NCBI RefSeq assembly: GCF_028435365.1
Contig: NZ_JAGTJJ010000046.1
Span: 28,178 to 92,177, forward strand
Origin: Polyangium jinanense
GTDB taxonomy: Bacteria; Myxococcota; Polyangia; Polyangiales; Polyangiaceae
Reading direction: 5' to 3'
Length of the DNA stretch: 64,000 nucleotides
Position 1 is the first letter of the stretch; the number at the start of each line of letters is the position of its first letter. Of this stretch, positions 24,853-44,342 are shown piece after piece. The notes below the pieces were generated by a model. The model was not told where the DNA came from. It searched no databases and saw only the letters and a list, made by a program, of their open reading frames with translations. A program made the position numbers and the translations under genes.

Positions 24853-27420
24853 TCAGAGCCTCGATAGGAGCAGCGGGGCTGCGATCTCGGCCATCAGCGG
24901 ACCCGCTAGAAATCGACCGATGCAGGCGTGTGAGCCGTAGCCGAAGAGCAGCGAGTGTTCGTCCGGGCGGCCCGGCTGGAACACGTCGGGCTCTTCGAGC
25001 GCCTCGTCGTCGGCCATTGCCGAGGCGAGCGAGAGGATGACCCGGCTGCCCTTCGCAATACGGGTCGCGCGGGGTGTGCCCGCAGCGAGCTCGTAATCGG
25101 TGAGCGCGGTCCTGTAGAGCAGCGACGGATAGGGGTCGAAGCGAGCGGCTTCGAGCAGGATGTCCGTCAGCCGGTCCATGTCCCGCTTCTTCGCGGCCTC
25201 GCGCGCCTTCTTGCAGGCCTCGGGCGCGCCTTGGAGGTACGTGAGGGCATGCAGGAGGGTCATCGCGGTCGGGACCATCGTCCCGGAAACGATCCCGCCC
25301 AGGATTTGACGGATGGTCATGCGGTCGAGCCCGTGCGTGGTGGAGAGCGCGAGGAGCCGGCCGAGCACGTCGTCCCCCGCGAGTTTTCCACTCGCGATCG
25401 AGAGCTCCCGCGCGCGCAGGAGCTCTTCGAGGTAATGCTGGTATGCAATGCCGGCCGCAGCGCCGGAGGCTGCACGCTCGTCGCTGGGCAGTGGGAAAAA
25501 GATGTAGGCCGACGCCACGCTCAGCCAACGGAAAAGGTCCTCGTCGGAAGGTCCGGGCACGCCGAAGTATTCACCGGCGGTACGCACCACCGAGGCGATG
25601 ACGACCTGCGGAAGAAGGTCCGGCGCGCCGTTCGCGCGTCTCTCGAGGAGACCGAAGACGACGGGCGTGACGAAGCGTGCCCGCTCGAGAAGCCTCGGCA
25701 GGTCCCGAGGCCGGACGACGAGGCGCGCGAGGGATGCCTCGCGCTTGTGGCGTTCGCCGTCGAAGCCCAGGAAAAACGGGCCCACGGTGGCCGCCATGCG
25801 AGCCCCGTATTCCTGGGCCGAGAAGACCTCGGGTTTGGCGAGGACCTCCTGCACGTCCCGGAACCGCGACACGAGCACGCCGTGCGGGGTCTCGAAAATG
25901 GGCTGCTCCTTTCGCAGCGCAGCCCAGTTCTCCGCGGTGTCGCAGAAGGGCCTCCGCGCGGTCACCGGATCCAGGAGACAGGCCTCGACGCAGTCCCTCT
26001 TGTCCTCGTCGTTTTGCGCGAGCGCGTACTTCTGCAGGAACTTTTCGATTGCATCAGGCTGGGGTTTCTCCTCGTTCGTGATGTACCGGAGCGCTTCGAT
26101 GCCCGGCACGAAGAAATACGCGCCTCCGCGCACCCGGACGAAGCTCGGTAGCCCGCAGAGGGTGTGGACCGAGGCGAGCTCACCGTTCGGGCCGGCTGCG
26201 GGCACGGTATACGTCCCCTGCGGGAAGGGAGAGCCGGCGACGGGATCGTGGACGGTGCTGGGCTCGCCGCTGACGTTTCCGTTGTTCAGCCATTGCTGCA
26301 CGATCTCGAACTGAAGCGAGAGCGAGGCAGAGTAGGCGATGAACATGAGCCCGCGATCCACGTGGTCCTCGTCCTTTCCTTCCGGCAGCGGCGGGCCGTA
26401 CGCCATCCCGCGGCGGATGAGCCGGTGCGAGCGGACGGCGGTGCGCCTCGCAACGGGCAGGGCGTCACGCGGATTCACGCGACGGATGTGGGCGCCGAAC
26501 GGGCAGCGGAGCCCCTGCGGATCCTGCTCTTGATAGCCGAAATTGTCGCGCCGCTCGACTGGCATGTCGGGTTCGTCCTTGTCGGGGGCGAGCACGAGCG
26601 GCACGCCGCTCCGCCACCGGCCCATGAGCTTCGCGGCGACGAGCTCCTCGTCCATTCCGAGAATGGCCGCGTTTTTCGCGACGAAGCGGCGGAATCCGGG
26701 GACGTCCTGGCGCAACTTGCGGAGCGCGAGGTACGTGCCATTGCGGCGCAGCGCCCTCGGGTTCGGCCGAGCGGCGACGGCGCCGAAATCGTCGGGGTGA
26801 TCGAGCAGGAACGCGCCGGGTTCGAGCGCGCGCCCCGGTGGTGCGTCCGTCCCGTCGCCGACGATACTGGGATTGCTGCCGCCGTCGGCGAACCCGAAAT
26901 GCTCCCGCCCTCCCTCGAGCGACGCCGCCGTCTGCACGTGGAGGACGCGCACCCGAGCCGTTTCGGCCTCGGTGCGCAGTTCGCTTGCGCGCGCATCCGC
27001 CTCGGCATCGCTGCGCGCATAGACGATTGCCATCGCGTGCAAGGCCGGCGCGCCGGGGGGCAGGAGATCCCAGCGCTCGGGCGCGTCCTCGCCGACGTCG
27101 CCGAGGAACGCCGCGCGCTGCACCATTCCCTCGCGAAATTCCTCCGGGAAGCTCTCGAGCTCCTCGGCGGAGAGCCCCAGCGCCGCGAGCCCGTCGAACG
27201 TGAACGCGAGGTTCAGCGTGGAAGGCGGCCCCGGCGGCCTGGTGCGGGCCGTCGTGACTTCCGGGATCTTCGTGGCGATGAAGCGGCGCCCGGCAGGGAC
27301 GTCCTCGAAATGCAGGAACAGGAAGCGCGCGTGGCGCATGTTGAATGTTTTGCCGTAGGAGAGCAGGAGGTGGCCCTGCACGTCCTCGAACTCGATCATG
27401 GAAGCTTTGTTCGTGCTCAT
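24853..27420 (-). CDS. DyP-type peroxidase fused to cytochrome P450, 855 aa
   Basis: ATG 27420 overlaps the stop of the upstream gene (ATGA). Residues about 8-450 are a dye-decolourising peroxidase: the GxxDG motif GFADG with catalytic Asp179, the proximal heme ligand His311 in FGAHIRRVNPRD, and the distal-side segment HRLIRRGMAYG. Residues about 495-855 are a P450: HKREASL in the C-helix region, ExxR as E757-AA-R760, and the heme-thiolate loop FGYGSHACIG with Cys833. In helix I the usual A-G-x-E/D-T-T is replaced by SGTMVP (712-717), so the acid-alcohol pair that serves O2 activation is missing. That is seen in P450s that use peroxides or rearrange hydroperoxides. Two hemes in one chain suggest channelled chemistry, plausibly on a fatty acid released by the patatin encoded upstream (inference). 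No signal peptide; cytoplasmic. Confidence 0.9.
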   Translation of the reverse strand: MSTNKASMIEFEDVQGHLLLSYGKTFNMRHARFLFLHFEDVPAGRRFIATKIPEVTTARTRPPGPPSTLNLAFTFDGLAALGLSAEELESFPEEFREGMVQRAAFLGDVGEDAPERWDLLPPGAPALHAMAIVYARSDAEADARASELRTEAETARVRVLHVQTAASLEGGREHFGFADGGSNPSIVGDGTDAPPGRALEPGAFLLDHPDDFGAVAARPNPRALRRNGTYLALRKLRQDVPGFRRFVAKNAAILGMDEELVAAKLMGRWRSGVPLVLAPDKDEPDMPVERRDNFGYQEQDPQGLRCPFGAHIRRVNPRDALPVARRTAVRSHRLIRRGMAYGPPLPEGKDEDHVDRGLMFIAYSASLSLQFEIVQQWLNNGNVSGEPSTVHDPVAGSPFPQGTYTVPAAGPNGELASVHTLCGLPSFVRVRGGAYFFVPGIEALRYITNEEKPQPDAIEKFLQKYALAQNDEDKRDCVEACLLDPVTARRPFCDTAENWAALRKEQPIFETPHGVLVSRFRDVQEVLAKPEVFSAQEYGARMAATVGPFFLGFDGERHKREASLARLVVRPRDLPRLLERARFVTPVVFGLLERRANGAPDLLPQVVIASVVRTAGEYFGVPGPSDEDLFRWLSVASAYIFFPLPSDERAASGAAAGIAYQHYLEELLRARELSIASGKLAGDDVLGRLLALSTTHGLDRMTIRQILGGIVSGTMVPTAMTLLHALTYLQGAPEACKKAREAAKKRDMDRLTDILLEAARFDPYPSLLYRTALTDYELAAGTPRATRIAKGSRVILSLASAMADDEALEEPDVFQPGRPDEHSLLFGYGSHACIGRFLAGPLMAEIAAPLLLSRL

Positions 27421-30320: not shown

Positions 30321-30512
30321 TCAGGCAAGGCGGAGAGCCGACGTGCGGGCCCAGAAGTCCCGCAGGATCCGGGGCACCTCGACGTGCCCGAACGAGCCGC
30401 TGCGCTCGAGCACGTGAAATTCGGCCGAGGGTGCGAACGCCAGGAAGTGGCGCGGAAGGGCGGGATGGAGCGCCCGAGGCTCCGCGGCCGCGGCGGCCTT
30501 TTCCGTGCTCAT
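30321..30512 (-). CDS. 63-residue peptide, coupled to the ATP-grasp gene
   Basis: ATG 30512 overlaps the stop of the upstream ATP-grasp ligase (ATGA), so translation is coupled. The 63 residues begin with an Ala-rich stretch (MSTEKAAAAAEPRALHPALP) followed by a more conserved-looking C-terminal part (FHVLERSGSFGHVEVPRILR, then DFWARTSALRLA). No cysteines, no membrane helix, no double-glycine leader. It is the last gene of the minus-strand half of the nitrosourea-type cluster. It could be a small carrier or tether peptide for the ligases, a ribosomal precursor peptide, or merely a conserved accessory; the sequence does not decide. Confidence 0.6.
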   Translation of the reverse strand: MSTEKAAAAAEPRALHPALPRHFLAFAPSAEFHVLERSGSFGHVEVPRILRDFWARTSALRLA

Positions 30513-31786
30513 GATGGCGCTCCTCGTGAATCGTCGAGCTCCAGCTGCCGCTCTTTGTCGCGGATCTTGTGATAATCGGACAGCACCTGGGCGCGGTCCG
30601 CGTGCGCGAGGACCACGAAGCCGGGGTCCAGGCTGCCGAAGAGATCCCTCGTGGGCTGCAATCGATCGCCGTTCCGGAAGCGGATCACCGAGAAATAATG
30701 GCTCGGAAGCGCCTCGACGTCGGCGAAGATCTCCGCATTCCGCACGATCCCCGGCGTCCGGACGATCAGGAACACCACGAGGACGTGCGATTGCAGGCCG
30801 AAGCCTTCGCGGACGTGCCCGAGTCGGGCGAAATATCGCACGGTCCGGTCCACCTGGCTGTCGCCGGTCGCGACGCGGCAAAACCTCGGCTGGCCGCCGC
30901 CGTGCGGGCGCGCGCCGATCTCGATGAGCCGCGGTCCCTCGCGGGTGAGCATCAGCTCCACATGCGCCGCGCCGAACCGGATCCCGACCGCGTCGAGGAC
31001 GCCACGCGTGTAGCCGATCAAGCGCTCGATCCCCGGGGTTTTAGGGGACAACCATTCCATGCGCTCGTGCACCGCCATGTGCGGGCCGTTGTCCACCTTG
31101 TGGTAGCGGCACACGTCGGTGACGGTGTGTTTGCCCTCGTAGGTGAACGTGTCCACCACGTATTCGGTGCCGTTCACGTGTTCCTGCACGACGAGCCGAT
31201 CATTGACGATGCCGAGGCGGTTCGGACGACCGAGCATCGAATGAAACACCTCCCGCCAGTCTTCGCCGCGAGGGACGCGGGTCACGTCGTCCCTGCTGGC
31301 GCTCTTCGGCGGCTTGATCACGAGGTCCCGGCCGGCGAGGTTCGAGCGGCAGAGCCATGCCTCGACCTCGTCGGCGTCGCTCGTGCAGAGCTGGCGGATG
31401 ATGGGCAAGCCGGCCCGGGCCACGGCCGCGGCCATGTCGCCTTTGTGGCGGCGCGCGCTCGCCTTCTCGGGGTCGTTGGCCACGTCCGGGACCACCCGGG
31501 GCGCGAGCGCGTCCGCGAGTTCCACGCCCGATTCGGAGCCCGGCAGCACGCACCGGGGGCGCAAGGCACGCAGACGCTCCACCAAGGGCTCGAGGTCCTC
31601 GGTCGCGGTGAGGATCGTCTCGAAATGCTCCGGTCTGTAGGAGGCGGCGTAAGCGGCCGGCGGCGAGGGGCTGGAGACGACCGCCACGACCGGGACGCCG
31701 GCCGCCGCGAATGCAGGCGCAAAGAGGGCGCCCGAGGAATAGGGGTCGACGATCACGGCCGGCCCATTCGGGTTACTTCGAGGCAT
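30509..31786 (-). CDS. ATP-grasp ligase 1 (L-amino-acid-ligase-like), 425 aa
   Basis: ATG 31786 has AAGGAG upstream and lies inside the 3' end of the hydrolase gene (14-base overlap). The protein follows the ATP-grasp plan: N-terminal Rossmann-like domain (VIVDPYSSGALFAPAF), the lysine strand GRDLVIKPPKSASRDDVT, VVQEHVNGTEYVVDTF, and the metal-binding block HVELMLTREGPRLIEIGARP with its two glutamates, followed by HGGG. Relatives such as the bacilysin ligase BacD join two amino acids with ATP by way of an acyl phosphate. In this cluster it may couple the N-nitroso amino acid, or its precursor, to another amino acid (inference). Its stop overlaps the start of the 63-residue peptide gene. Confidence 0.87.
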   Translation of the reverse strand: MPRSNPNGPAVIVDPYSSGALFAPAFAAAGVPVVAVVSSPSPPAAYAASYRPEHFETILTATEDLEPLVERLRALRPRCVLPGSESGVELADALAPRVVPDVANDPEKASARRHKGDMAAAVARAGLPIIRQLCTSDADEVEAWLCRSNLAGRDLVIKPPKSASRDDVTRVPRGEDWREVFHSMLGRPNRLGIVNDRLVVQEHVNGTEYVVDTFTYEGKHTVTDVCRYHKVDNGPHMAVHERMEWLSPKTPGIERLIGYTRGVLDAVGIRFGAAHVELMLTREGPRLIEIGARPHGGGQPRFCRVATGDSQVDRTVRYFARLGHVREGFGLQSHVLVVFLIVRTPGIVRNAEIFADVEALPSHYFSVIRFRNGDRLQPTRDLFGSLDPGFVVLAHADRAQVLSDYHKIRDKERQLELDDSRGAPS

Positions 31787-32717
31787 GGTTCTCCTTCACG
31801 CAGGCGAGCCGGGCCGCCCGGCTGCAGTATCTGGCCCACGCGTCCTCGACCTGCGGACAGAGCCCTCGCGCGCGGACGGCGGAATGCACGAGGCCGGGTT
31901 CGATCACGAGGTCGACGTCGATGCGGTGCTCGCGGAGGCAGCGGGCGTAGGCTTCCGCGTCCACGCGTAGCGAATCGAGCTCCGCGCCCATCAGATATGC
32001 AGGCGGCAGGCCGTCGAAGGTCCCGCGAAGAAGCGGGGACACGTACGGATGCGCGACCTGCCAGGGATCGGGCGCGTAGCAGGCCGTGTAGTACTCATTT
32101 TCGCGGCCCGTGAGCAACTGGACGTCGGCGCCGCGGCGCCAGCGGGTGAGGTCGAGGACCGGGCTGATGAGGGCCTGGCCGCACAGTTTGGGGCCGCCAC
32201 GGTCGCGGGCCATCAAGGCCACGGCGACGGCCATGTTCGCGCCCGAGCTGTCGCCGGCAATGACGATCCGGTCGGGATCGATGCCGAGCCGCGCGGCCTC
32301 GACGACGATGCCGCAAAGGGCGCCGTAGCAGTCCTCGAGGGCCGCCGGGAAGGGGTGCTCGGGTGCCAGGCGAAAATCGGGCGCAATGGTGACGAGCCCC
32401 GATCGGCAGGCGAGCTCGGCGACGACGGTGTTGTGCGTCTCCAGCGAGCCGACGACGAACCCGCCGCCGCGAATGTAGACGAGCAGGCCGCGTCCCACCG
32501 GGGAGCGCGGGCGATACACGCGAATCGACAGGCGCCGCCGCCCGTGGGCGACCACGTCGTCGGTGATGATCACGTCCGGCGGCAGCTCGTACGGGAACTC
32601 GAGGGTGAGCCCGAGATAGAGGGCACGCTGCTCCGCGAGGGGGCGCGTGTAGAAATCGGGGGGCATGGCCCGGTTGTATCGGTCGATGAAGGTTTGGAGG
32701 CCAGCGGCGAGAGGCAT
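31773..32717 (-). CDS. Alpha/beta hydrolase, HSL family, with altered oxyanion motif, 314 aa
   Basis: ATG 32717, with GAGGAGG upstream. Hormone-sensitive-lipase family: the block LVYIRGGGFVVGSLETHN corresponds to the family's HGGG oxyanion motif, but His is replaced by Arg. Nucleophile Ser in GDSSGANMAVAVAL (about residue 157), acid in MGAELDSLRVD (about 252), catalytic His in EPGLVHSAV (about 280). The triad is therefore complete. It would hydrolyse an ester or amide, possibly removing a protecting group or trimming a coupled product of the ATP-grasp enzymes. It lies between the two ligase genes on the same strand, 174 bases after the first and overlapping the second. Confidence 0.88.
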   Translation of the reverse strand: MPLAAGLQTFIDRYNRAMPPDFYTRPLAEQRALYLGLTLEFPYELPPDVIITDDVVAHGRRRLSIRVYRPRSPVGRGLLVYIRGGGFVVGSLETHNTVVAELACRSGLVTIAPDFRLAPEHPFPAALEDCYGALCGIVVEAARLGIDPDRIVIAGDSSGANMAVAVALMARDRGGPKLCGQALISPVLDLTRWRRGADVQLLTGRENEYYTACYAPDPWQVAHPYVSPLLRGTFDGLPPAYLMGAELDSLRVDAEAYARCLREHRIDVDLVIEPGLVHSAVRARGLCPQVEDAWARYCSRAARLACVKENHASK

Positions 32718-32891
32718 TCAATCCTCCTCGGGGGCGCTCGGAGCGCCGGTGGGGGTCGAAGGGCAGGGGGGAGAGGACGCGGCGACGCGCGGTGGCCCAG
32801 CGCTGAACCGGGCCATCGCGAATGCCGCAGCGGAGCAGGGCAAGTGCGGGGGGCGAGGCAGGTGTCCTTGGCCTGCGTATTCGTGCGATTG

Positions 32892-34172
32892 CTATTGCCT
32901 GCCTCCCGCGGCTTTCGGGGACTCCTCCGGGCGCAGCTTGATCGCGCGCGCGGCTACCTCGGCGCCGGCGGCGCACTCCGCCGTTGTTTTTCCGGCCGTA
33001 ACGACGTACGCGTATCGGCTGGTGACGTGCCCGGCCGGCGGCAATTCGAGGCGCTGCCCGGGCGCCGCGAGGGCGGCTGCGACGTTCACGGAGGCCGGCA
33101 GCGCGGCCTTGTCCATGTCCACGGCGCCTACGACCGTGTCCTCTGCCGGATAGAGGAAATGCACGGACGCGACCCGCAGCCGGATCGGCATGGCGCGCGG
33201 CGGGCGGCCACAAGCCACGTCCACCGCGACCTGCCCCGGGTCGATGCCGGACGCGACCCAGCCGACGTAGGGAATGAGGTCGTCGCCCAGGCGGGCGTTG
33301 ATTTCGATCACCTTGGGGCCGGCGTCGGTCAGGCGGAGCTCGGTATGCGTAATCCCGGTCCGGAAGCCGACGGCCCGGTGTGCCGCGTCGAGCACACCGA
33401 GCAAGGCCGGGTCGAGGAGCAGCGGATCGGCCGCGTTCACGACATGCCCGATTTCCTCGAAATGCGGAGGGAAGCCGAGGATCTTGCGCGCCACGAAGAG
33501 CGGGATCGGCCGGCCGTTCACCCACGCGGCGTCCACGCTGATCTCCGGCCCTTCGAGGTATTCCTCGACGAGCACGCTCGCATCGTCATGGGGTACGCCG
33601 TCCTCGGTCGACGTCCGGGCATGGTGATAGGCCGCGGCGAGTTCGTCCGGGCCCTCGACGCGGCTCACGCCGATGCTCGCGCCGAGCGCGCGCGGCTTGA
33701 CCACGACCGGATACCCAATCCGAAAGGCCGTCGCGGTCGCCTCCTCGACGGAGGAAACCAGCTTGGAGATCGCTTGCGGCACGGAGGCCGCGGCCAATGC
33801 GCTGCGGGTCTGGTGTTTGTCGCGGCACCGGGCGACCGCGACCGGGTCGGTGCCCGGCACGCCGAGCGCCTCGGCGACGCGGGCCGCGTGCACCATGCGG
33901 ATCTCGTCCCAGCAGATGACGCCGTCGATCGGGACCATGGCCGCGACCGCGCGGGCGGCGGTGATCATGGCCTCCGCGTCGAGCGTGTCGACAATCTTGG
34001 AATCGGTGATGTACGACCGTTCCCAGGAGGGCTCCCGGTCGAGGAAGAGAACCACCCGCGCGGCCTGCGAGATCATCCGCAAGAGATATTCGCGGTAAAG
34101 GTGATACCCGCTGCTCACGAGGAGGACGGTGGGCCGGCCGCTCGGGTCGGCATTCGGATGGGCCTCGAGCAT
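32892..34172 (-). CDS. ATP-grasp ligase 2, 426 aa
   Basis: ATG 34172 with AAGGAG six bases upstream. First gene of the minus-strand half of the cluster. N-terminal domain TVLLVSSGYHLYREYLLRMI, then the ATP-grasp fold: YPVVVKPRALGASIGVSRVE (ATP lysine and glycine loop), VLVEEYLEGPEISVDAAWV, and metal ligands THTELRLTDAGPKVIEINAR. The last 90 residues form the beta-rich C-terminal domain of the carbamoyl-phosphate-synthase-like ligases. It activates a carboxylate as acyl phosphate and joins it to an amine. It resembles ligase 1 only in the common fold, so the pair probably carries out two different couplings or acts on two different amino acids. Confidence 0.87.
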   Translation of the reverse strand: MLEAHPNADPSGRPTVLLVSSGYHLYREYLLRMISQAARVVLFLDREPSWERSYITDSKIVDTLDAEAMITAARAVAAMVPIDGVICWDEIRMVHAARVAEALGVPGTDPVAVARCRDKHQTRSALAAASVPQAISKLVSSVEEATATAFRIGYPVVVKPRALGASIGVSRVEGPDELAAAYHHARTSTEDGVPHDDASVLVEEYLEGPEISVDAAWVNGRPIPLFVARKILGFPPHFEEIGHVVNAADPLLLDPALLGVLDAAHRAVGFRTGITHTELRLTDAGPKVIEINARLGDDLIPYVGWVASGIDPGQVAVDVACGRPPRAMPIRLRVASVHFLYPAEDTVVGAVDMDKAALPASVNVAAALAAPGQRLELPPAGHVTSRYAYVVTAGKTTAECAAGAEVAARAIKLRPEESPKAAGGRQ

Positions 34173-34495
34173 CGTGATCTCCTTGTTTTCTCGTTGGAGT
34201 CTGGCCCCTCGGCGCCCGCGTACTCAAGCGTCGTGCCACCGGGCCCCGCTCCCCGTTCGGGCCACGATCCGGCACGTTTGTCGATCCATGATCGGCCGAA
34301 CGAACCCCGCCTGCTTGCATGATCGAGCAAGTTCCTGCAAGGCCACGCAAAACGATGGAATGCTCGGGCTCGGCAGGCGCGCGGGGTGGCGGCGCGGGCG
34401 ATGGCGGCGCGGGCAGCCCTGAAAGCCGCGAATCGTGTCTGGCATACGAAATGCTGTGAGGGGGCTCTCGGCACACCGCCCTAAGGAGACACCTC
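34173..34495. other. 323-base divergent promoter region of the nitrosourea-type cluster
   Basis: Separates the minus-strand ligase/hydrolase genes from the plus-strand methyltransferase/metalloenzyme genes. It contains a candidate sigma-54 promoter on the plus strand near 34440 and several imperfect inverted repeats such as GAGCAAG..CTTGCATGATCGAGC around 34315-34340. I found no good sigma-54 match for the minus-strand genes. Confidence 0.6.
34440..34455 (+). promoter_or_regulatory. Candidate sigma-54 promoter for the sznE-sznF-like operon
   Basis: TGGCATACGAAATGCT: GG at 34441-34442 and GC at 34453-34454 with exactly ten bases between, TGGCA at -24 and TGCT at -12. Expected start near 34466, 30 bases before the GTG at 34496; AAGGAG at 34483-34488 serves as ribosome site. 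Confidence 0.5.
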
Positions 34496-35629
34496 GTGAA
34501 GTTGTATGACGGAATGAGCGCAGAGGACCCTACGCCCGCGTCCGATACGGGTCTGCAATCGAGCCCGGAGCACCGGCGAGCCCCCCGCGCGAAGCTACGC
34601 GTGGTGGCCGATCGGGCGCGCGCACGCGCCCTCGTCGAGGAGGGCCATCGCCTCGCCGCGAGCTTTCAACTGGAGCGGGCCCTCGAGCGATTCGAGGAGG
34701 CCTCGACGCTCGACGCCGACAACGAGGCCATCGTTCTGACGATGAACGGGCTCCTGCGCAAGCTCGTTCCACGCTGGTATTTCGCGATGCTGAACGATCA
34801 CGAGCGAAACCAGGCTTTCGAGCGCGCGCTCGAGATCGCCATTGGAGGCTCGCCGTGCACGGTGCTCGACGTGGGCTCCGGGACGGGGCTGCTCGCCATG
34901 ATGGCGGCCCGCGCGGGGGCCGGGGCCGTGTTCACCTGCGAGTCGGTCGTGGCGATCGCGCGATTGGCGCGGCGGATCATCGCGGAGAACAAGCTCGACC
35001 ATCAAATCTCGGTCATCCCCAGGGTGTCGACCGACCTCGTTGCCGGCCGGGACATCCCCCGGCGGGCCGATTTGCTGGTGACCGAGACCTTCGATTGCGG
35101 TCTGCTCGGCGAAGGGATCTTGCCCATCGTCCGCCACGCGCGGGAAAAACTCCTGCGACCGGAGGCGAAGGTCATCCCGGGGCGGGCGAAGGTCTGCTTC
35201 CAGCTCCTCGAGAGCGACGCCGTCCACCGCAACAACTTCGCCTTCGAGGTGGGCGGCTTCGACGTGAGCCTGTTCAATCAGGTCTCGACGAAGACATATT
35301 TTCCGGTGCGCCTGCGCGCGCACCCGCATGCCTTCCTGAGCCCTGCCGCGGAGGCGTTCGAATTCGACTTCGAGCGAGGCCCCCTGGATCCGCGCACATG
35401 CACCGTATCCGTCACGACGAAGCAGCGCGGCCGCGTCCACGGCATCGCGTTCTGGTTCGAGCTCGATCTCGGCGGCGGGGTCGTGCTGACGAACGCCCCG
35501 ACAAACCACCAGAGCCACTGGATGCAGGCCGTCCAGTGCTTCGAGACGCCGCTCGACGTCGAGCGCAACCAGGTCGTGACCGTCACGTGCAAGCACGACG
35601 ACACGAGCATCCGCTTCTCGCTCGCCTGA
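34496..35629 (+). CDS. sznE: SznE-like arginine N-methyltransferase (PRMT fold), 377 aa
   Basis: GTG 34496 with AAGGAG seven bases upstream. Residues about 44-80 form a TPR-like helix pair. Then comes the PRMT core in the PRMT7/9 style: YFAMLNDHERNQAF (95-108), motif I VLDVGSGTGLLAMMAARAGA (123-142) for S-adenosylmethionine, and the double-E loop ETFDCGLLGEG with Glu197 and Glu206, which grips the guanidinium group. The THW loop of PRMTs appears as SHW in HQSHWMQ. In streptozotocin biosynthesis SznE methylates free L-arginine to N-omega-methylarginine, the substrate of SznF. Here too the gene sits 22 bases ahead of a SznF homologue, which makes that role likely rather than protein methylation. 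Confidence 0.85.
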   Translation: MKLYDGMSAEDPTPASDTGLQSSPEHRRAPRAKLRVVADRARARALVEEGHRLAASFQLERALERFEEASTLDADNEAIVLTMNGLLRKLVPRWYFAMLNDHERNQAFERALEIAIGGSPCTVLDVGSGTGLLAMMAARAGAGAVFTCESVVAIARLARRIIAENKLDHQISVIPRVSTDLVAGRDIPRRADLLVTETFDCGLLGEGILPIVRHAREKLLRPEAKVIPGRAKVCFQLLESDAVHRNNFAFEVGGFDVSLFNQVSTKTYFPVRLRAHPHAFLSPAAEAFEFDFERGPLDPRTCTVSVTTKQRGRVHGIAFWFELDLGGGVVLTNAPTNHQSHWMQAVQCFETPLDVERNQVVTVTCKHDDTSIRFSLA

Positions 35630-35651
35630 TCCACCACCGATCCCCCACGGA

Positions 35652-37100
35652 ATGACGATGCAGCACAAGAAACGCTCCCTCTCGGACGAGCGCTCGAGGA
35701 ACCCGGCCGTCGACGATTACGATTTTTTCGCTCGGTGCCTGCAGGCGTACGGCGAGAGCGACCTCTACGCCGACATCGAGACCTGGCGCATCGAGGACAA
35801 CCCGTACCGGCGCCCGCTGCGGCCGCACGTGTTCAAGGACCTGAACTTCCAGAAGCCGCTCGCCCGTGAGGAGCTGCTCACCTCCGCCAGCCTGACCGCG
35901 TGTCGCACGCTGCTCACCATTTACGAGAGCGACTTCGTCCTGCTCCCGCGACGCGACCTCGCGTCGAAGCGCGCCGATATGGACGAATTCTACGGGCGGC
36001 GCGCGCAGGTCCTCGGCGCCATCGTGCGCCCGTGGCTGGAGTCGTATCTGTTCGGCTTCCTCGATGACGCGATCTCGACCTCCGGCCGCTGGACGCTCTC
36101 CTCCATGAGCGAGTATTTCGAGAGCTTCATCGCCGAGGAGCGGCGGCGGTCCGATGGCTCGATGGCCACTGCCATCCTCACCTCGGAGTACCCGCAGCAT
36201 GCGGCCCGGACGTGCCTCGTCCAGCTCGCGAGCGATTTTCTCCTCGAATCGTCCGCGATGGGGCGGAACGTGGGCGGCAGCTACGGGCCGCTCCAGTCGG
36301 AGATGTTCAAGATCCTCATCGACGAGCTCGGCTATGGTGTCCATCGGACCCGGCACAGCTCGCTCTACGAGGGCACCATGGAGAGCGTCGGCCTCGCCTC
36401 GACGCCGCACACCTACTGGCAGTTTTACCTGACGTCGTCGCTCCTCCTGAACAACTATTACAATTATGTGTGCCGCAATCACGGCCGGTTTTTCCGCTAC
36501 ATCGGGGCTCTCTTCCAGGCCGAGACCACCTTCATCGAGATGTGCCGCCGCATGGCCGACACGCTGCGCAAGGTCTTCGGCCCGGGCGTCGATGTCCGTT
36601 ACTTCCAGGAGCACGCCCATATCAATCAGCATCGCAGCCGGATGGTCTTCGACAGGATGATCCTGCCGGCCGTGGAGATGTTCGGGGAGGGGATCATCCC
36701 GGACATCGTGCGCGGCTTCGAGGAGGGCAAGCTCCTCGCCGGGATCGCGAAGCAGGACTACCTCGATCAGGTCGCCTGGTCCGACAGCAGCGCCCACTGG
36801 AAACTGCTGGCCCCGGCGATCCACCGAAACATCGAGCATAGCCGGGAGAAGCCGAAGGTGCAGCGGTTCATCGAGCCACGCGGCGAGCTCTCGGTGACCC
36901 ACGTGCACGACGGCGACGCGCTCTGCTTCATCCAGTCCGGCATCCTGCGGTTCGTGACCGGCCACGAGCGGTCGGTGCTGCTGCACGCGGGGGAGGGGAC
37001 GGTGATCCGTCGCAATCGGCTGCACGGCGCGCTCATCGAGTCCGAGGAGTGCACCTACGACATCCATTCCATTGGAGATTACGAGCAATGGCTGTCGTGA
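35652..37100 (+). CDS. sznF: SznF-like N-nitrosourea-forming metalloenzyme: heme-oxygenase-like diiron domain plus cupin
   Basis: 482 residues from ATG 35652 (ATG 35658 is also possible). Three parts: helical N-terminal region (1-145), heme-oxygenase-like diiron oxidase domain (about 150-345), C-terminal cupin (about 400-482). Compared with the ligands I recall for SznF, all positions fall at a constant offset of +10: Glu199, Glu225, His235, Glu291 and His321 for the diiron site, and His417, His419 and His458 for the mononuclear cupin iron. This fit over the whole chain argues for a true homologue. SznF hydroxylates N-omega-methylarginine twice, then the cupin rearranges it to the N-nitrosourea. 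Oddity: the positions of the last two diiron ligands are Asn325 and Arg328 instead of Asp and His, with His327 alongside; activity of the oxygenase site is therefore uncertain. Confidence 0.88.
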   Translation: MTMQHKKRSLSDERSRNPAVDDYDFFARCLQAYGESDLYADIETWRIEDNPYRRPLRPHVFKDLNFQKPLAREELLTSASLTACRTLLTIYESDFVLLPRRDLASKRADMDEFYGRRAQVLGAIVRPWLESYLFGFLDDAISTSGRWTLSSMSEYFESFIAEERRRSDGSMATAILTSEYPQHAARTCLVQLASDFLLESSAMGRNVGGSYGPLQSEMFKILIDELGYGVHRTRHSSLYEGTMESVGLASTPHTYWQFYLTSSLLLNNYYNYVCRNHGRFFRYIGALFQAETTFIEMCRRMADTLRKVFGPGVDVRYFQEHAHINQHRSRMVFDRMILPAVEMFGEGIIPDIVRGFEEGKLLAGIAKQDYLDQVAWSDSSAHWKLLAPAIHRNIEHSREKPKVQRFIEPRGELSVTHVHDGDALCFIQSGILRFVTGHERSVLLHAGEGTVIRRNRLHGALIESEECTYDIHSIGDYEQWLS

Positions 37101-39813: not shown

Positions 39814-42800
39814 TCACGCGATTTTTCTCCAGTAGATGCCGTAAAGCGAGGTGACGTCGCCGTTGATCCGCGACGAAAGGTCGTCGTACACGCGCGTCAT
39901 GAGGACGCCGTTCGGCTCGCAGAGCGCCCGCAGCCGGTGTACGACGCGTCGTGGCTGCGTCGTATAGTCGGGCGGCAGCGGGCCCAAGCCGCCGTACCGC
40001 GTGGCAATCGCGACGAGGCGAATCCCGAGCGGCCGGCAGAGCGCTTGCTCGATGGCCTCGACGATCGCGAAGCGCAACCACGGCATCTGTCTTCGCAAAT
40101 AGAGTCCGTTCAAGAGGACCGCGGGCCCATCCTCGCAGAGCCCGAAGCCGCCAAACACGAACCCCTGCGCCTCCGCGACGCCCGCGCGGGGCGCGCGCAC
40201 GACCTGAAAGCAGAAGGAGAGCGGGTCCTTCCAGAGCGAGAGCACCATGCGCTGGGTGCTCACATCACGCCCGTACGCATACATGGAGCTCGTGCTGTTG
40301 AAGCAGCACGGCACGCAGTCGGCGAAGCGCAAGAACGCCGCGAAATCGCGCCGTTTGTCGAGGTACCGCAGCACGAGGACGCCGCTCGATCCGAGGGGCA
40401 GCGGCCGCGCGAGCGCGGGCACGGGCGGCGCGCCCTGGACGAGCGCCTGTACGGCTTGGTCGGCGCCGGGCAAGTGTCGGCGCAGGCGCGCGATCGGGCC
40501 GACGGCGACCGGGCCGACGTCCTTCTGCAAGCGCTCCACGATGCGCTGCCAATCGTGCTCACTCCACACGGCTGCGTTGTGCCCCGGCGACACGGGGCAT
40601 AACGCGGAGAGCAGTCGCAGCCGATCCGGCTCCTCGGCGAGCCCACGCACGAAGTCCTCGGGATCGCCCTGGAACAGTGCTTCGCGACGTTCGAGGATCT
40701 GGCGCACGCGCTCCTCGCCGGTCGCCGGCAGATCGGGCGTGTCCACGATCGCCAGCACCTCCGGGCCGGGAGGCGTGCCGACATCACGCGTAAAGGTCCG
40801 GACGAAGTCGGCGAGCCACGTGGAGGCACGATCGCCGAGGCGCAACATGAGGCGCGTGAACGTGCGGCCGTGCGCGCTCGCGGTGCCCGGCGGGAACAAG
40901 CCCCGAGCCTCGATTTGCGTCGCAGCCCATGGTGCCTGTCGATCCCGCGCGAAGACCTCGTACTGCTCGACGAAGATCTCCGTCGCGCGCTGGGGCGCGA
41001 GCGCGGCGAGCGCGCCGAACAGAGTTCTTCTGGTCTGCGCATGCCCGCTGCGTTCCACGGAGCGCACGAGCGCGTGTTGCAGGACGATCGTGGCCTGCTC
41101 CCCGCCGAGGTTCTGGAGGCAACGAATCCGCGATGTCGTGGCGGCACGCGCCTCCTCGCCGCCCGCGGGATCCTTGTCGAGTACGCGGCGCAGATAGGCG
41201 CGGCCCGCGTCGATCAGCGCCACGCGGCGCCGCTTGCGCATGTTCGTGAACGAGATCCCCTCGTCGTAATGGGCGCGCGCGGCGCCGAGCGCGTCGCGGA
41301 AACGTGGATCAAGACGGCAGCGATCCCAGCTCGACGTCGGGCCGAGCGCGCCGAGCGCAAAGGCTGCCTCGGGCGTGACGTGGCCGCCGACATCGAGATC
41401 CGCGAGCGTATCCCGCAGCGTGGAGGCGCTCTCGAGAAGGTCCAGGCAGTGCTCCGTGATCCGCGTGGCGTTGAGCACGTCCGCCTTCCACCAGCGCACC
41501 TCGTGTGGCTCTCCTTCGTCCGGATGAAGCAGGTTGTTCCAATATGCGGTGTTCCTGAAGAGCACGCGTCGCAGCGAAGCATCGTCGAATGCACGAGCCA
41601 CGAGCTCACGCGGCAGCAGGGCGTCACGTCCGTAGCCCGTGCGCGCACAAAAGATCCCGATCCGGACGAGCCATGCTTCGCGGGCCAGCTTGGTCTCCAT
41701 CGGCTCGGGCTCGCCGGGGAGCCGCGGCTCGTGCAGCGCTGCGCGCCGCGGTGGGACGAGCAGCGTCATCGGCAAGGCAACCACGCGCTTCTCGGCCCGC
41801 CGCACGAGGCCCGCATCGAGATCGAGGCGCGCGAGCAAGAGCTGGATCGCGGGCGCGAGCGCCGGATCCTCCACGCGCTGGATCCGTCGCCGCGCCGCGA
41901 GCCGCTCGCCGTGATCGGCGAAAAACGCCGCGATGGCGAGCTCGGCACGACCTCGCAGATATCGCCCCGGCGCGTGCGCGAGCAGCGCCTCGGCGTGGTC
42001 CAGCCGCTCCGCATGGAGCGCAGCGCCGATCGCGCCGAGCCAGCCGTGATTCCACGCGTTTCGATGCCGCACGGCGCGCAGAAGCGCGATGACCCCGGCG
42101 GGCCCACGCTCCGGATACCGCGCAATCGCCAGGAGCGCGCGCGCCTCTTGTCCTGCGCTGCCTTCGATGCGCGTCCGCATTTCCTCGGCGATGCGCGACG
42201 CCTCCCCGCCCATCACGAAGAGTTCGCGCACGAGCGGCAGCGACGGCCGATACATGCGCGCCTCCTCCAGCGAATCGAGATTCCCCACGAACGAGTACGA
42301 GCGCTCGCGCCCCGGGTGTTGCTCGATCCCGTCCTCGATCCGCGCGAGGGCGCGCTCGCGCAGCCATCCCTTCGGCAAGGCCCTCGCGCGTTCGAGGGCC
42401 TCGCGCCGCCGGCCGCTCGCAAGCTCGATGCTGAAGCGATGGATCCGCGCGGATTCGACGCTGCCGAAGAGCCCTTCCGCGCGCTCGGCGATCCGCGCGA
42501 TGGCCCGCGGGGCGGGGCTTTCCTCCGCCGCGAGCCGCTCCTCCAGATACGTCACGAGCAGCGCTCCCGCCGGACCGGCCTCGCAGTCCTCTCGTGCGCC
42601 CACGAGCGAGCGCAGCGACGAGAGGATCTCGCCGGAAAGCTCGCCTTCGCGGGCGACGGACCCGAGATATCGCCGCTCCAGCGCGCGCGCAGCGGCGGCG
42701 AGGTGAATCAACGTGCCGGCACGCACGGCGGGCCGGCGGAGATCTGCGGAAATGGAGACCATTCGACGAACAAAAACGATCACACGCGCCATCGAGTCCG

Positions 42801-42837
42801 TCGCAAACGGGTTCGATGCGCCATAGGCGGAGTCCAT
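39814..42837 (-). CDS. Large hypothetical protein with TPR-like repeats, 1007 aa
   Basis: ATG 42837 (MDSAYGASNPF); ATG 42792 (MARVIVFVRRM) is an alternative. The first 400 residues are helical repeats with short-chain TPR character (ALARIEDGIEQHPGRERSYS, RAELAIAAFFADHGERLA). The middle contains a helical region with WNNLLHPDEGEPHEVRWWK. The last about 250 residues form an alpha/beta domain with RYLDKRRDFAAFLRFADCVP, QGFVFGGFGLCEDGPAVLLN and LRFAIVEAIEQAL, which faintly resembles an acyltransferase (GNAT) fold; I would not assign it. No signal peptide. It is divergent from the YcaQ gene across 293 bases in which I see no gene. Confidence 0.72.
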   Translation of the reverse strand: MDSAYGASNPFATDSMARVIVFVRRMVSISADLRRPAVRAGTLIHLAAAARALERRYLGSVAREGELSGEILSSLRSLVGAREDCEAGPAGALLVTYLEERLAAEESPAPRAIARIAERAEGLFGSVESARIHRFSIELASGRRREALERARALPKGWLRERALARIEDGIEQHPGRERSYSFVGNLDSLEEARMYRPSLPLVRELFVMGGEASRIAEEMRTRIEGSAGQEARALLAIARYPERGPAGVIALLRAVRHRNAWNHGWLGAIGAALHAERLDHAEALLAHAPGRYLRGRAELAIAAFFADHGERLAARRRIQRVEDPALAPAIQLLLARLDLDAGLVRRAEKRVVALPMTLLVPPRRAALHEPRLPGEPEPMETKLAREAWLVRIGIFCARTGYGRDALLPRELVARAFDDASLRRVLFRNTAYWNNLLHPDEGEPHEVRWWKADVLNATRITEHCLDLLESASTLRDTLADLDVGGHVTPEAAFALGALGPTSSWDRCRLDPRFRDALGAARAHYDEGISFTNMRKRRRVALIDAGRAYLRRVLDKDPAGGEEARAATTSRIRCLQNLGGEQATIVLQHALVRSVERSGHAQTRRTLFGALAALAPQRATEIFVEQYEVFARDRQAPWAATQIEARGLFPPGTASAHGRTFTRLMLRLGDRASTWLADFVRTFTRDVGTPPGPEVLAIVDTPDLPATGEERVRQILERREALFQGDPEDFVRGLAEEPDRLRLLSALCPVSPGHNAAVWSEHDWQRIVERLQKDVGPVAVGPIARLRRHLPGADQAVQALVQGAPPVPALARPLPLGSSGVLVLRYLDKRRDFAAFLRFADCVPCCFNSTSSMYAYGRDVSTQRMVLSLWKDPLSFCFQVVRAPRAGVAEAQGFVFGGFGLCEDGPAVLLNGLYLRRQMPWLRFAIVEAIEQALCRPLGIRLVAIATRYGGLGPLPPDYTTQPRRVVHRLRALCEPNGVLMTRVYDDLSSRINGDVTSLYGIYWRKIA

Positions 42838-43130
42838 GCGCTCCTCCTTCGGGCGGACGCGGACCGGATGGCGCGTGCGCGACGCGGCTTCGAAGGCCCG
42901 CAGATCACGTGCAGCGCGCGCACTCGTCCCCGTCCGCCCTGGGTACGAGAAACACCAGGGGCGACGATGTGGGACGGGCCTTCGCGCTTACACGAAGAAG
43001 AAGAGCATGGCGGCGTGAGCCTGCACGCGGGGAGGGGGCCTTGTCAAGAGCCGTCGCGGCTGCCCGCACGGCGTGGCGCTCGCGCCCCGTTTGGCCCTCG
43101 GACGTACCGCGGCTACCATGCGGGTCCCCC

Positions 43131-44342
43131 ATGAAGGAGAAGATCGACCTCTCGGCTAAGCAGGCACGGCGCATCGCCCTCGCGGCGCAAGGTTTTGCCG
43201 AAGCGCGGCCGGCGAGCGTGAACCGCCGCCACTTCGCCAAGACGGCGGACCGGCTGGGCGTGATCCAGCTCGACAGCGTCAACGTCCTTGTCCGCACGCA
43301 CTATCTCCCCGCATTCTCGCGGCTGGGCGTGTATCCGCAGGCGCTCCTTGAAAAGGAGGCCTGGGGGAAGAAACGGTCGCTCTTCGAGTACTGGGGGCAC
43401 GAGGCCTCGCTCATGCCGCTCGCGCTTCAGCCCTTGCTGCGCTGGCGCATGGCGCGCGCGCAGGCGGGGGAGCTGTGGGGCGGGCTCGCGCGCTTCGCCA
43501 AGGAGAAACGCGCGTATATCAAGAGCGTGCTCGCCGAGATCGAAAAGCGGGGGCCGGTCACGGGAGGTGATTTCGCCACGGGCCCGCGGGGTGCGTCCGG
43601 CTGGTGGTCGTGGTCCGATGGCAAGCGCGCGCTCGAATGGTTGTTCTGGGCCGGATACCTGACGACGGCGACGCGGCGTGGTTTCGAGCGGGTGTACGAT
43701 CTGACCGAGCGGGTCATGCCTGCCGACATCATGGGCTTGCCCACGCCGTCGGAGGCGGATGCCCAGCGCGAGCTCGTCCGCATGGCCGCGCGAGCCATGG
43801 GCATCGCGACCGAGGCCGACCTGCGCGATTATTTCCGATTGCCCTTGCAGGGAGCTCGCGCTCGGGTGCAGGAGCTCGTCGAGGCTGGCGAGCTCTTGCA
43901 GGTCTCGGTCGAGGGTTTTCACAAGCCGGCGTACCTGCATCCCGAGGCGCAAACGCCGCGCCGGATCGGCGCCCACGCGCTCCTTTCGCCGTTCGACAAC
44001 CTGATCTGGTTCCGCGACCGCACCGAGCGGCTCTTCGGGGTGAAGGTCCGGCTGGAGATCTATACGCCGGCCGAGAAGCGCACCCACGGCTATTACGTTT
44101 TGCCGTTCCTCGAAGGCGACACCATCACCGCGCGGGTGGATCTGAAGGCCGACCGCAAGGCCAGCGTGCTCCGGGTGCAGGCCTCTCACACCGAGCCCGG
44201 CGCGGGTCCGGACACGCCCGACCGATTGGCGGCGGAGCTCGCCCATATGGCCGAATGGCTCGGGATGGAGCGGGTCGAGGTGGCGGGGCGGGGGAACCTG
44301 GCGAACGCGCTCGGGGCAGCCGTCGCGGCGCTTTCTGCGTGA
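43131..44342 (+). CDS. ycaQ: YcaQ/AlkX-type DNA glycosylase (winged-helix, HTH_42)
   Basis: ATG 43131, 403 residues, the usual length. The N-terminal LSAKQARRIALAAQGF is characteristic, and LGVIQLDSVNVLVRTHYLP carries the catalytic Q-x-D signature of the YcaQ branch (Q-x-Q marks the AlkZ branch). WGHEASLMPLALQPLLRWRM and LSPFDNLIWFRDRTERLFG follow as in the family. These monofunctional glycosylases are built from tandem winged helices and remove N7-alkylguanines, including those in interstrand crosslinks. It lies 6 kb from the nitrosourea-type cluster, with three unrelated genes between, so a self-protection role is only a possibility. In-frame codons before 43131 are antisense to the neighbouring gene. 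Confidence 0.9.
   Translation: MKEKIDLSAKQARRIALAAQGFAEARPASVNRRHFAKTADRLGVIQLDSVNVLVRTHYLPAFSRLGVYPQALLEKEAWGKKRSLFEYWGHEASLMPLALQPLLRWRMARAQAGELWGGLARFAKEKRAYIKSVLAEIEKRGPVTGGDFATGPRGASGWWSWSDGKRALEWLFWAGYLTTATRRGFERVYDLTERVMPADIMGLPTPSEADAQRELVRMAARAMGIATEADLRDYFRLPLQGARARVQELVEAGELLQVSVEGFHKPAYLHPEAQTPRRIGAHALLSPFDNLIWFRDRTERLFGVKVRLEIYTPAEKRTHGYYVLPFLEGDTITARVDLKADRKASVLRVQASHTEPGAGPDTPDRLAAELAHMAEWLGMERVEVAGRGNLANALGAAVAALSA

What the first reader, a model, noticed from the sequence alone, without database searches (positions are those of the whole stretch)
30321..37100. A compact myxobacterial gene cluster for an N-nitrosourea-type (N-N bond) natural product
Seen: a PRMT-type methyltransferase (34496-35629) and a three-part HDO-plus-cupin metalloenzyme (35652-37100) in one operon, divergent from two ATP-grasp ligases, an alpha/beta hydrolase and a 63-residue peptide. 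Known: in streptozotocin biosynthesis SznE methylates L-arginine and SznF converts it to an N-nitrosourea. The cupin histidines (417, 419, 458) and five diiron ligands fall at a constant +10 offset from those of SznF. Inference: the ligases couple the nitroso amino acid (or relative) to another amino acid instead of glucosamine, so the product would be a new peptide-like nitroso compound. No glycosyl-type gene of the streptozotocin pathway is visible here.
Basis: partly seen in the sequence, partly recalled or inferred. Interest (0 to 1): 0.95.

Follow-up and report, generated by a model that had tools for sequence, protein, structure and literature searches.

The report
Decaying nitrosourea gene cluster, intact elsewhere
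A Polyangium-like soil bacterium carries a damaged copy of a gene cluster that is predicted to make a DNA-methylating nitrosourea compound; undamaged copies lie in related myxobacteria and in cyanobacteria, and in two of the cyanobacteria DNA-repair genes that would likely protect the producer sit right beside it.

Summary
(1) The '63-residue peptide' is the in-frame remnant of a second alpha/beta hydrolase gene, whole in two other Polyangium loci and two cyanobacteria; an MFS exporter gene is also deleted here. (2) The SznF-like enzyme keeps its cupin histidines and five diiron ligands, but the other two (SznF D315, H318) are Asn and Arg; 120 of the 120 homologues listed (of 341 found) keep both. 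This copy is likely inactive. The cluster type is real: methyltransferase, SznF, two ATP-grasp ligases, exporter and two hydrolases recur in Polyangium and cyanobacteria. DNA-alkylation repair genes lie near 5 of 18 SznF-homologue loci, one protein fuses Ada's sensor half to the methyltransferase, and streptozotocin clusters carry MGMT and 2OG-oxygenase genes (PMC12224297 passage): support for a DNA-methylating nitrosourea. The ligases' partner stays open. Bold rival: FlcD, a one-iron relative, lost the same two ligands.

The parts
34496..35629 (+). PRMT-like methyltransferase (SznE-like); predicted to methylate L-arginine
   Evidence: PRMT_C 53 bits; nearest solved chains PRMT7/PRMT9; conserved beside SznF in L001, L002, L003, L004, L005, L017
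35652..37100 (+). SznF-like HDO-cupin protein, two diiron ligands lost
   Evidence: 478 bits to SznF 6m9r; model TM 0.90 to 6vzy; ligand check
36624..36635 (+). codons 325-328: Asn and Arg where SznF has ligands D315 and H318
   Evidence: D and H kept in 120 of 120 listed homologues
32892..34172 (-). ATP-grasp ligase 2 (L-amino acid ligase / BacD-like)
   Evidence: ATP-grasp_4 72 bits; best solved match BL00235 L-amino acid ligase 1e-21
32718..32891 (-). remnant of a deleted MFS exporter gene (174 bp here; 440-aa ORF in L017)
   Evidence: intact relative in L003 is MFS_1, 107 bits
31773..32717 (-). Abhydrolase_3 family hydrolase
   Evidence: 195 bits; best solved match carboxylesterase EST2; nine window-only changes incl. 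one deleted residue
30509..31786 (-). ATP-grasp ligase 1 (L-amino acid ligase, DdaF-like)
   Evidence: ATP-grasp_4 43 bits; full-length match to solved L-amino acid ligase 30vh, 1e-53; DdaF 142 bits against cut-off 840
30321..30512 (-).
   Evidence: intact relative in L003 is Abhydrolase_1, 81 bits

Best explanation
This is a damaged copy of a gene cluster predicted to make a DNA-methylating N-nitrosourea from arginine: its SznF-like enzyme lacks two of the seven diiron ligands, and its exporter gene and one hydrolase gene are deleted, so the pathway is likely off in this organism. Predicted working in the undamaged relatives: the PRMT-like enzyme methylates L-arginine; the SznF-like enzyme hydroxylates two guanidine nitrogens at its diiron site and its cupin domain rearranges the product to a nitrosourea amino acid; one or both ATP-grasp ligases join that amino acid to a partner, probably another amino acid; the MFS protein exports the product; the hydrolases trim or release it; Ada and an AlkB-like oxygenase, where present, undo methylation of the producer's own DNA. 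Shown here: the gene set, its recurrence in two phyla, the changed ligands and the deletions. Inferred: every reaction, the partner, and that the pathway is off. One end of the exporter deletion is shared with Polyangium sp. 15x6, the hydrolase deletions differ between the two, and the ligand change is seen in the window alone, so loss of the exporter probably came first.
For: SznF identity and fold. Ligands D315 and H318 changed, kept in 120 of 120 listed homologues and in 13 of 14 other loci aligned; a review passage says Ala at either ended SznF activity. Exporter and hydrolase deletions against L002 and L017. Further window-only changes at sites at least 98% conserved: SznF E423A, ligase 1 T165R and Y240H, methyltransferase H95Y; L002 and L017 have none of these. 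Same gene set in cyanobacteria. Repair genes near 5 of 18 loci, Ada-methyltransferase fusion, MGMT and 2OG oxygenase in streptozotocin clusters.
Against: The five open genes still show purifying selection against L001 (dN/dS 0.20-0.31), and window-lineage counts are only modestly raised (SznF 14 nonsynonymous:17 synonymous against 8:13 in L001; ligase 1 5:14 against 5:9), so decay is recent or partial. Ligase 2 has more lineage-only changes in L001 (8) than in the window (4), and L001 has its own strict-site change in the methyltransferase. The Polyangium clusters have no Ada or PF09859 gene nearby. 13 of 18 loci show no such repair gene in the flanks searched. No reaction was tested; the window's whole genome is not held, so a second, working copy elsewhere cannot be excluded.
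Confidence: 0.68

Rival explanations
1. The cluster works in this organism: the remaining ligands suffice, another transporter exports the product, and a nitrosourea amino acid is coupled to a partner.
For: Open frames throughout, purifying selection, all three cupin histidines and the Tyr kept.
Against: Both changed residues are iron ligands reported as essential in SznF and kept in 120 of 120 listed homologues; exporter and second hydrolase deleted; no YqcI/YcgG heme N-oxygenase, which stands in for a broken HDO in chalkophomycin-type clusters, in the sister genomes G001, G002 and G345.
Confidence: 0.12
2. The window's enzyme is changed rather than dead: with its metal motif now E-H-E-H-N-R it holds one iron, as FlcD (E-H-E-H-V-R) does, and carries out a different oxidation.
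For: FlcD lost the same two ligands and also has Arg at the second position (PMC11363339 passages); the review passage names loss of two alpha3 ligands as the route to a mononuclear site; the rest of the protein is conserved and the HDO region is modelled with high confidence.
Against: Seen in one sequence only; exporter and hydrolase are lost at the same time; strict sites in ligase 1 and the methyltransferase are also changed; His-to-Arg is an easy single change; overall fold match to FlcD is weak (TM 0.41).
Confidence: 0.08
3. The damage is an artefact of sequencing or assembly of the window's record.
For: The reads and the source genome are not held; all window-only changes rest on one record.
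Against: The exporter deletion shares an end point with the independent record L001, and L001 has other deletions in the same two genes; the ligand changes are substitutions among other substitutions, not indels.
Confidence: 0.04
4. In the intact clusters the SznF product is not an alkylating end product but serves as a nitric oxide source or a metal-binding ligand.
For: The review passage says the SznF product can break down to nitric oxide; other SznF homologues serve diazeniumdiolate metallophores.
Against: An arginine-methyltransferase-like gene beside SznF in 12 of 18 loci, and DNA-methylation repair genes beside several, point to a methylating product; no NRPS was seen in the flanks annotated.
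Confidence: 0.08

Closest known systems
SznE/SznF of streptozotocin biosynthesis (Streptomyces achromogenes var. streptozoticus)
   Same: Methyltransferase plus three-part HDO-cupin protein, 222 of 448 residues identical to SznF, same fold; repair-type genes reported in streptozotocin clusters and found in cyanobacterial relatives
   Different: Two diiron ligands lost in the window; ATP-grasp ligases and MFS exporter are part of this type; sugar-coupling genes SznH/J/K could not be compared because the cluster sequence is not held
GrbD/ChmM-type SznF homologues (diazeniumdiolate metallophores)
   Same: SznF relatives in which HDO ligands are lost while the cupin stays (PMC10849742 section 6)
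   Different: Those go with NRPS/PKS genes and a YqcI/YcgG heme N-oxygenase; none found in G001, G002, G345; the window keeps five of seven ligands
FlcD, mononuclear-iron HDO of fluopsin C biosynthesis
   Same: The same two ligand positions lost, Arg at the second
   Different: No cupin domain in FlcD as far as I recall; overall fold match weak (TM 0.41); different pathway
ATP-grasp amide ligases DdaF (dapdiamide), BacD (bacilysin), L-amino acid ligases
   Same: ATP-grasp family; ligase 1 matches a solved L-amino acid ligase (30vh) over nearly its whole length
   Different: Far below the DdaF (142 of 840 bits) and BacD (63 of 850 bits) cut-offs; substrates unknown

Membership tests
SznF-type nitrosourea synthase (window copy) | Seven diiron ligands in the HDO domain | tested here: not met
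   Five of seven; D315 and H318 are N325 and R328
SznF-type nitrosourea synthase (window copy) | Cupin triad H407/H409/H448 and Tyr459 | tested here: met
   H417, H419, H458, Y469
SznF-type nitrosourea synthase (window copy) | Three-part fold of SznF | tested here: met
   Model pLDDT 92.5, TM 0.90 to 6vzy
SznF-type nitrosourea synthase (window copy) | Turns N-omega-methyl-L-arginine into a nitrosourea | not testable with these tools
   Needs purified protein
szn-type gene cluster | SznE-like methyltransferase beside the SznF-like gene | tested here: met
   34496-35629; SznE itself was not available for alignment
szn-type gene cluster | O6-methylguanine repair and 2OG-oxygenase genes in the cluster | tested here: not met
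   None near the window or its Polyangium relatives; met in L003 and L004; an AlkZ-like gene 5.5 kb away is untested for linkage
szn-type gene cluster | Sugar-coupling genes (SznH, SznJ, SznK) | not tested
   No streptozotocin cluster sequence was available; primary papers not held
FlcD-type mononuclear HDO | Motif E-H-E-H-x-R | tested here: met
   E225 H235 E291 H321 N325 R328 against FlcD
FlcD-type mononuclear HDO | One iron per monomer | not testable with these tools
   Needs protein and metal analysis
Precursor-peptide role of the 63-aa ORF | A conserved short gene in related clusters | tested here: not met
   L002, L017, L003 and L004 have a full-length hydrolase there
DdaF / BacD amide ligases | Above the NCBIfam equivalog cut-off | tested here: not met
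   Ligase 1: DdaF 142 of 840 bits; ligase 2: BacD 63 of 850 bits; the general ATP-grasp_4 cut-off is met by both

The most novel reading that the evidence does not exclude
After losing its exporter, this lineage turned SznF into a one-iron oxygenase by dropping exactly the two ligands that FlcD dropped independently: a natural switch from diiron to mononuclear chemistry inside a nitrosourea pathway, while sister species and cyanobacteria keep the original enzyme and, through ATP-grasp ligases, make a nitrosourea peptide that works as a DNA methylator against which they carry their own repair genes.
Probability: 0.07. Interest if true: 0.85.

Novelty: new variant of a known kind. Interest (0 to 1): 0.5.

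Why it matters
If undamaged copies act as predicted, DNA-methylating nitrosoureas would be made not only by actinomycetes but also by myxobacteria and cyanobacteria, with stand-alone ligases instead of large assembly lines, and neighbouring DNA-repair genes would serve as a marker for finding more. The protein that fuses Ada's methylation sensor to the arginine-methyltransferase-like domain suggests a testable idea: a producer that senses methylation of its own DNA to set synthesis. The window shows how such a pathway may fall apart, and four related Polyangium loci at different stages allow the order of losses to be tested.

Tried and rejected
Rejected: the 63-aa ORF as a precursor peptide or carrier (it is a hydrolase remnant). 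Rejected: a heme N-oxygenase standing in for the broken HDO. PF08892 has no match in G001, G002, G345, G003 and G469; its one match is in G470, about 270 bp from that genome's degenerate SznF homologue. The window's own genome is not held, so for the window this is by relatives and by the window ORFs scanned. Considered: Ada near the Polyangium clusters. The PF01035 matches of G001 and G002 lie on contigs other than the cluster's, PF09859 has no match in G001, G002 and G345, and tblastn finds neither in L017 and L018. Led nowhere: single-sequence structure model (pLDDT 35.5). Paper searches: 'nitrosourea' + 'biosynthetic gene cluster' + 'myxobacteri' 0 papers; 'nitrosourea' + 'gene cluster' + 'self-resistance' + 'Ada' 0 papers; 'SznF' + 'ATP-grasp' 3 papers, of which I saw two passages of PMC12154649, neither about this cluster, and only the listing of the other two. 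I claim nothing about print beyond these searches of an open-licence library; the primary SznF papers are not held. Not finished: whether the AlkZ-like gene travels with the cluster.

Limits of the counts. The strict-site tests left P0001 and P0002 (SznF), P0121 (the window's own methyltransferase) and P0241 (ligase 1) out of the reference sets. Lineage counts use only codons where the outgroups agree. In the gene-neighbour counts a gene counts if tblastn gave at least 50 bits, or the record annotates it; flank lengths differ and L006 and L036 are short contigs; L036 also has a methyltransferase-like ORF that this test did not count.
Full report
What is there. The window is 68.6% GC. Two genes read right: a PRMT-like methyltransferase (34496-35629) and an SznF-like protein (35652-37100). 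Three open genes read left: ATP-grasp ligase 2 (32892-34172), an Abhydrolase_3 (31773-32717) and ATP-grasp ligase 1 (30509-31786). The SznF match is plain: 478 bits, 222 of 448 aligned residues identical, and an AlphaFold2 model from a 62-sequence alignment (pLDDT 92.5) overlays SznF 6vzy with TM 0.90.

The ligands. SznF has seven diiron ligands (seven HDO metal-binding residues in a legend of PMC10849742; six are named in PMC11705231; E189 as the seventh is recalled). The other two, D315 and H318, are N325 and R328. All 120 homologues listed keep both, as do 13 of 14 other loci aligned; the exception, L022, a 26% relative, keeps D only and has lost other HDO ligands too. Two of the 120 are the proteins of L001 and L002. 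The cupin triad and Tyr are kept. A review passage reports that alanine at any of six diiron ligands, these two among them, ended activity. E423, conserved in at least 98% of 118 homologues, is also changed; L001, L002 and L017 share none of these three changes.

The 'peptide' and the missing exporter. The 63 residues at 30321-30512 match the two ends of a hydrolase gene that is whole in L002, L017, L003 and L004 (307-315 residues; Abhydrolase_1, 81 bits in L003). The window has lost one large internal stretch and 12 bp; L001 has lost other stretches of the same gene. Between ligase 2 and the first hydrolase, L002, L017, L003 and L004 have an MFS exporter gene; L001 keeps parts of it and the window 174 bp. 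One end of the exporter deletion is the same in L001 and the window. Other open genes of the window carry changes at strict positions: ligase 1 T165R and Y240H (2 of 81 sites) and methyltransferase H95Y (1 of 42; L001 has a different one of 42); L002 and L017 have none. Among the six hydrolase sequences compared, nine changes are found in the window only, against 1, 3 and 2 in L001, L002 and L017; for ligase 2 the counts are 4, 8, 3 and 1, so there L001 is the more changed. Against full decay, dN/dS between window and L001 is 0.20-0.31 for the five genes, 0.23 and 0.34 for two flanking genes, and window-lineage counts are SznF 14 nonsynonymous to 17 synonymous (L001 8:13), methyltransferase 11:8 (6:12), ligase 1 5:14 (5:9). 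The loss is therefore recent, or part of the pathway still serves.

The cluster type elsewhere. The seven-gene set (methyltransferase, SznF, ligase 2, MFS, hydrolase, ligase 1, second hydrolase) is whole in L002 and L017 and, all on one strand, in the cyanobacteria L003 (Amazonocrinis) and L004 (Calothrix); L033 has it with a shorter second hydrolase of 257 residues. I compared 18 loci with SznF homologues: 4 Polyangium (the window included), 8 cyanobacterial, Pendulispora (L019), another Polyangiales (L022), a Pyrinomonadaceae MAG (L006) and three proteobacterial plasmids (L024-L026). An ATP-grasp gene lies near 11 of 18 and a PRMT- or PrmA-like methyltransferase gene near 12 of 18; L006, L020, L022, L025 and L036 have neither by this test. 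Among listed protein hits, identical longest-contig lengths pair SznF with the methyltransferase for 27 lengths and with ligase 1 for 18, against about 0.4 and 0.5 when lengths are shifted. Two proteins fuse an Abhydrolase_3 domain to ligase 1 (P0294, P0343). The type is rare: SznF matches in 2 of 377 genomes drawn from the phylum of G001, 6 of 183 of its order (two at only 26-27% identity), 4 of 388 drawn from the order of G003 and 6 of 217 of its family; not all of these have the full set.

DNA-repair partners. L003 and L004 continue with an M24 peptidase, Ada and a PF09859 oxygenase. A Pantoea plasmid has Ada directly upstream of its SznF homologue; a Methylobacterium plasmid has AlkA and Ada about 5.5 and 6.6 kb upstream of the methyltransferase gene, with other genes between; L034 has an HhH-GPD glycosylase behind the M24 gene. 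That is 5 of 18 loci; 13 show none in the flanks searched. For scale, six genomes of about 56 Mb in all have 12 PF01035 matches, so an Ada-type gene would fall within a given 20 kb well under 1% of the time; the genes of L003 and L004 are among those 12. P0158 joins Ada's metal-binding sensor and AraC domain to a methyltransferase of this family. A paper passage says a region has genes similar to ones of two deposited streptozotocin clusters, among them a 2OG oxygenase-like gene, two MGMT genes and a sigma factor gene (PMC12224297). The Polyangium clusters have no Ada or PF09859 nearby. An AlkZ-like glycosylase gene lies 5.5 kb from the window's SznF and in the same flank of L001, L002 and L018; whether it belongs to the cluster is untested.

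Mechanism. From SznE/SznF chemistry as told in PMC11705231 and PMC13108848 (passages), the undamaged clusters would make a nitrosourea derivative of citrulline. The nearest solved chains of the methyltransferase are PRMT7 and PRMT9; that PRMT7 adds a single methyl group is recalled. Both ligases resemble L-amino-acid ligases but stay below the DdaF and BacD cut-offs, so a small peptide is likely and its partner unknown. Four relatives of another branch have a Rieske protein next to SznF (L023-L026), a plausible electron donor.

Known or new. More than 400 cryptic SznF-homologue clusters were mined before; PMC10849742 (abstract, section 6 and passages seen) describes a cluster of SznF with 135 other proteins in szn-type clusters, 118 of diazeniumdiolate type and 48 beside NRPS/PKS genes among 426 proteins, and its main text does not use the term ATP-grasp; its supplement could not be read. 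The present type is best called a new variant of a known kind, and the window a damaged member. The FlcD comparison keeps a bold alternative open: exactly the two ligands that FlcD has replaced are replaced here, with Arg at the same place.

Noticed in passing
window 42594-44342 (+): AlkZ-like DNA glycosylase (PF06224, 233 bits), 5.5 kb downstream of the SznF-like gene and in the same flank of L001, L002 and L018; could be self-protection or just a neighbour.
   Followed up: partly
P0158: A 502-residue protein fuses Ada's metal-binding sensor and AraC domain to a methyltransferase 54% identical to the window's: possibly a damage-sensing biosynthetic enzyme.
   Followed up: partly
L005 8782-15153 and L034 10337-17783: A second cyanobacterial cluster type: methyltransferase, SznF, other hydrolase, amino-acid permease and M24 peptidase, without ATP-grasp ligases; L034 adds an HhH-GPD glycosylase.
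   Followed up: partly
L023, L024, L025, L026: SznF homologues on plasmids, three of them proteobacterial, each directly followed by a Rieske 2Fe-2S protein gene.
   Followed up: no
L022 9221-10693 (-) and G470:C1:11770399-11771022 (-): In another Polyangiales genome a 26% SznF homologue with broken HDO ligands lies about 270 bp from a YqcI/YcgG gene, the pairing known from chalkophomycin-type clusters.
   Followed up: partly
L006 8910-10301 (+): A 40% SznF homologue with all seven HDO ligands but no cupin histidines, between an aminotransferase and an ornithine/aspartate carbamoyltransferase gene: perhaps an N-hydroxylase only.
   Followed up: no
window 24853-27420 (-): One ORF with a DyP-peroxidase-like part and a cytochrome P450 part, 83-92% conserved in L017 and (first 458 residues held) L001.
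   Followed up: no
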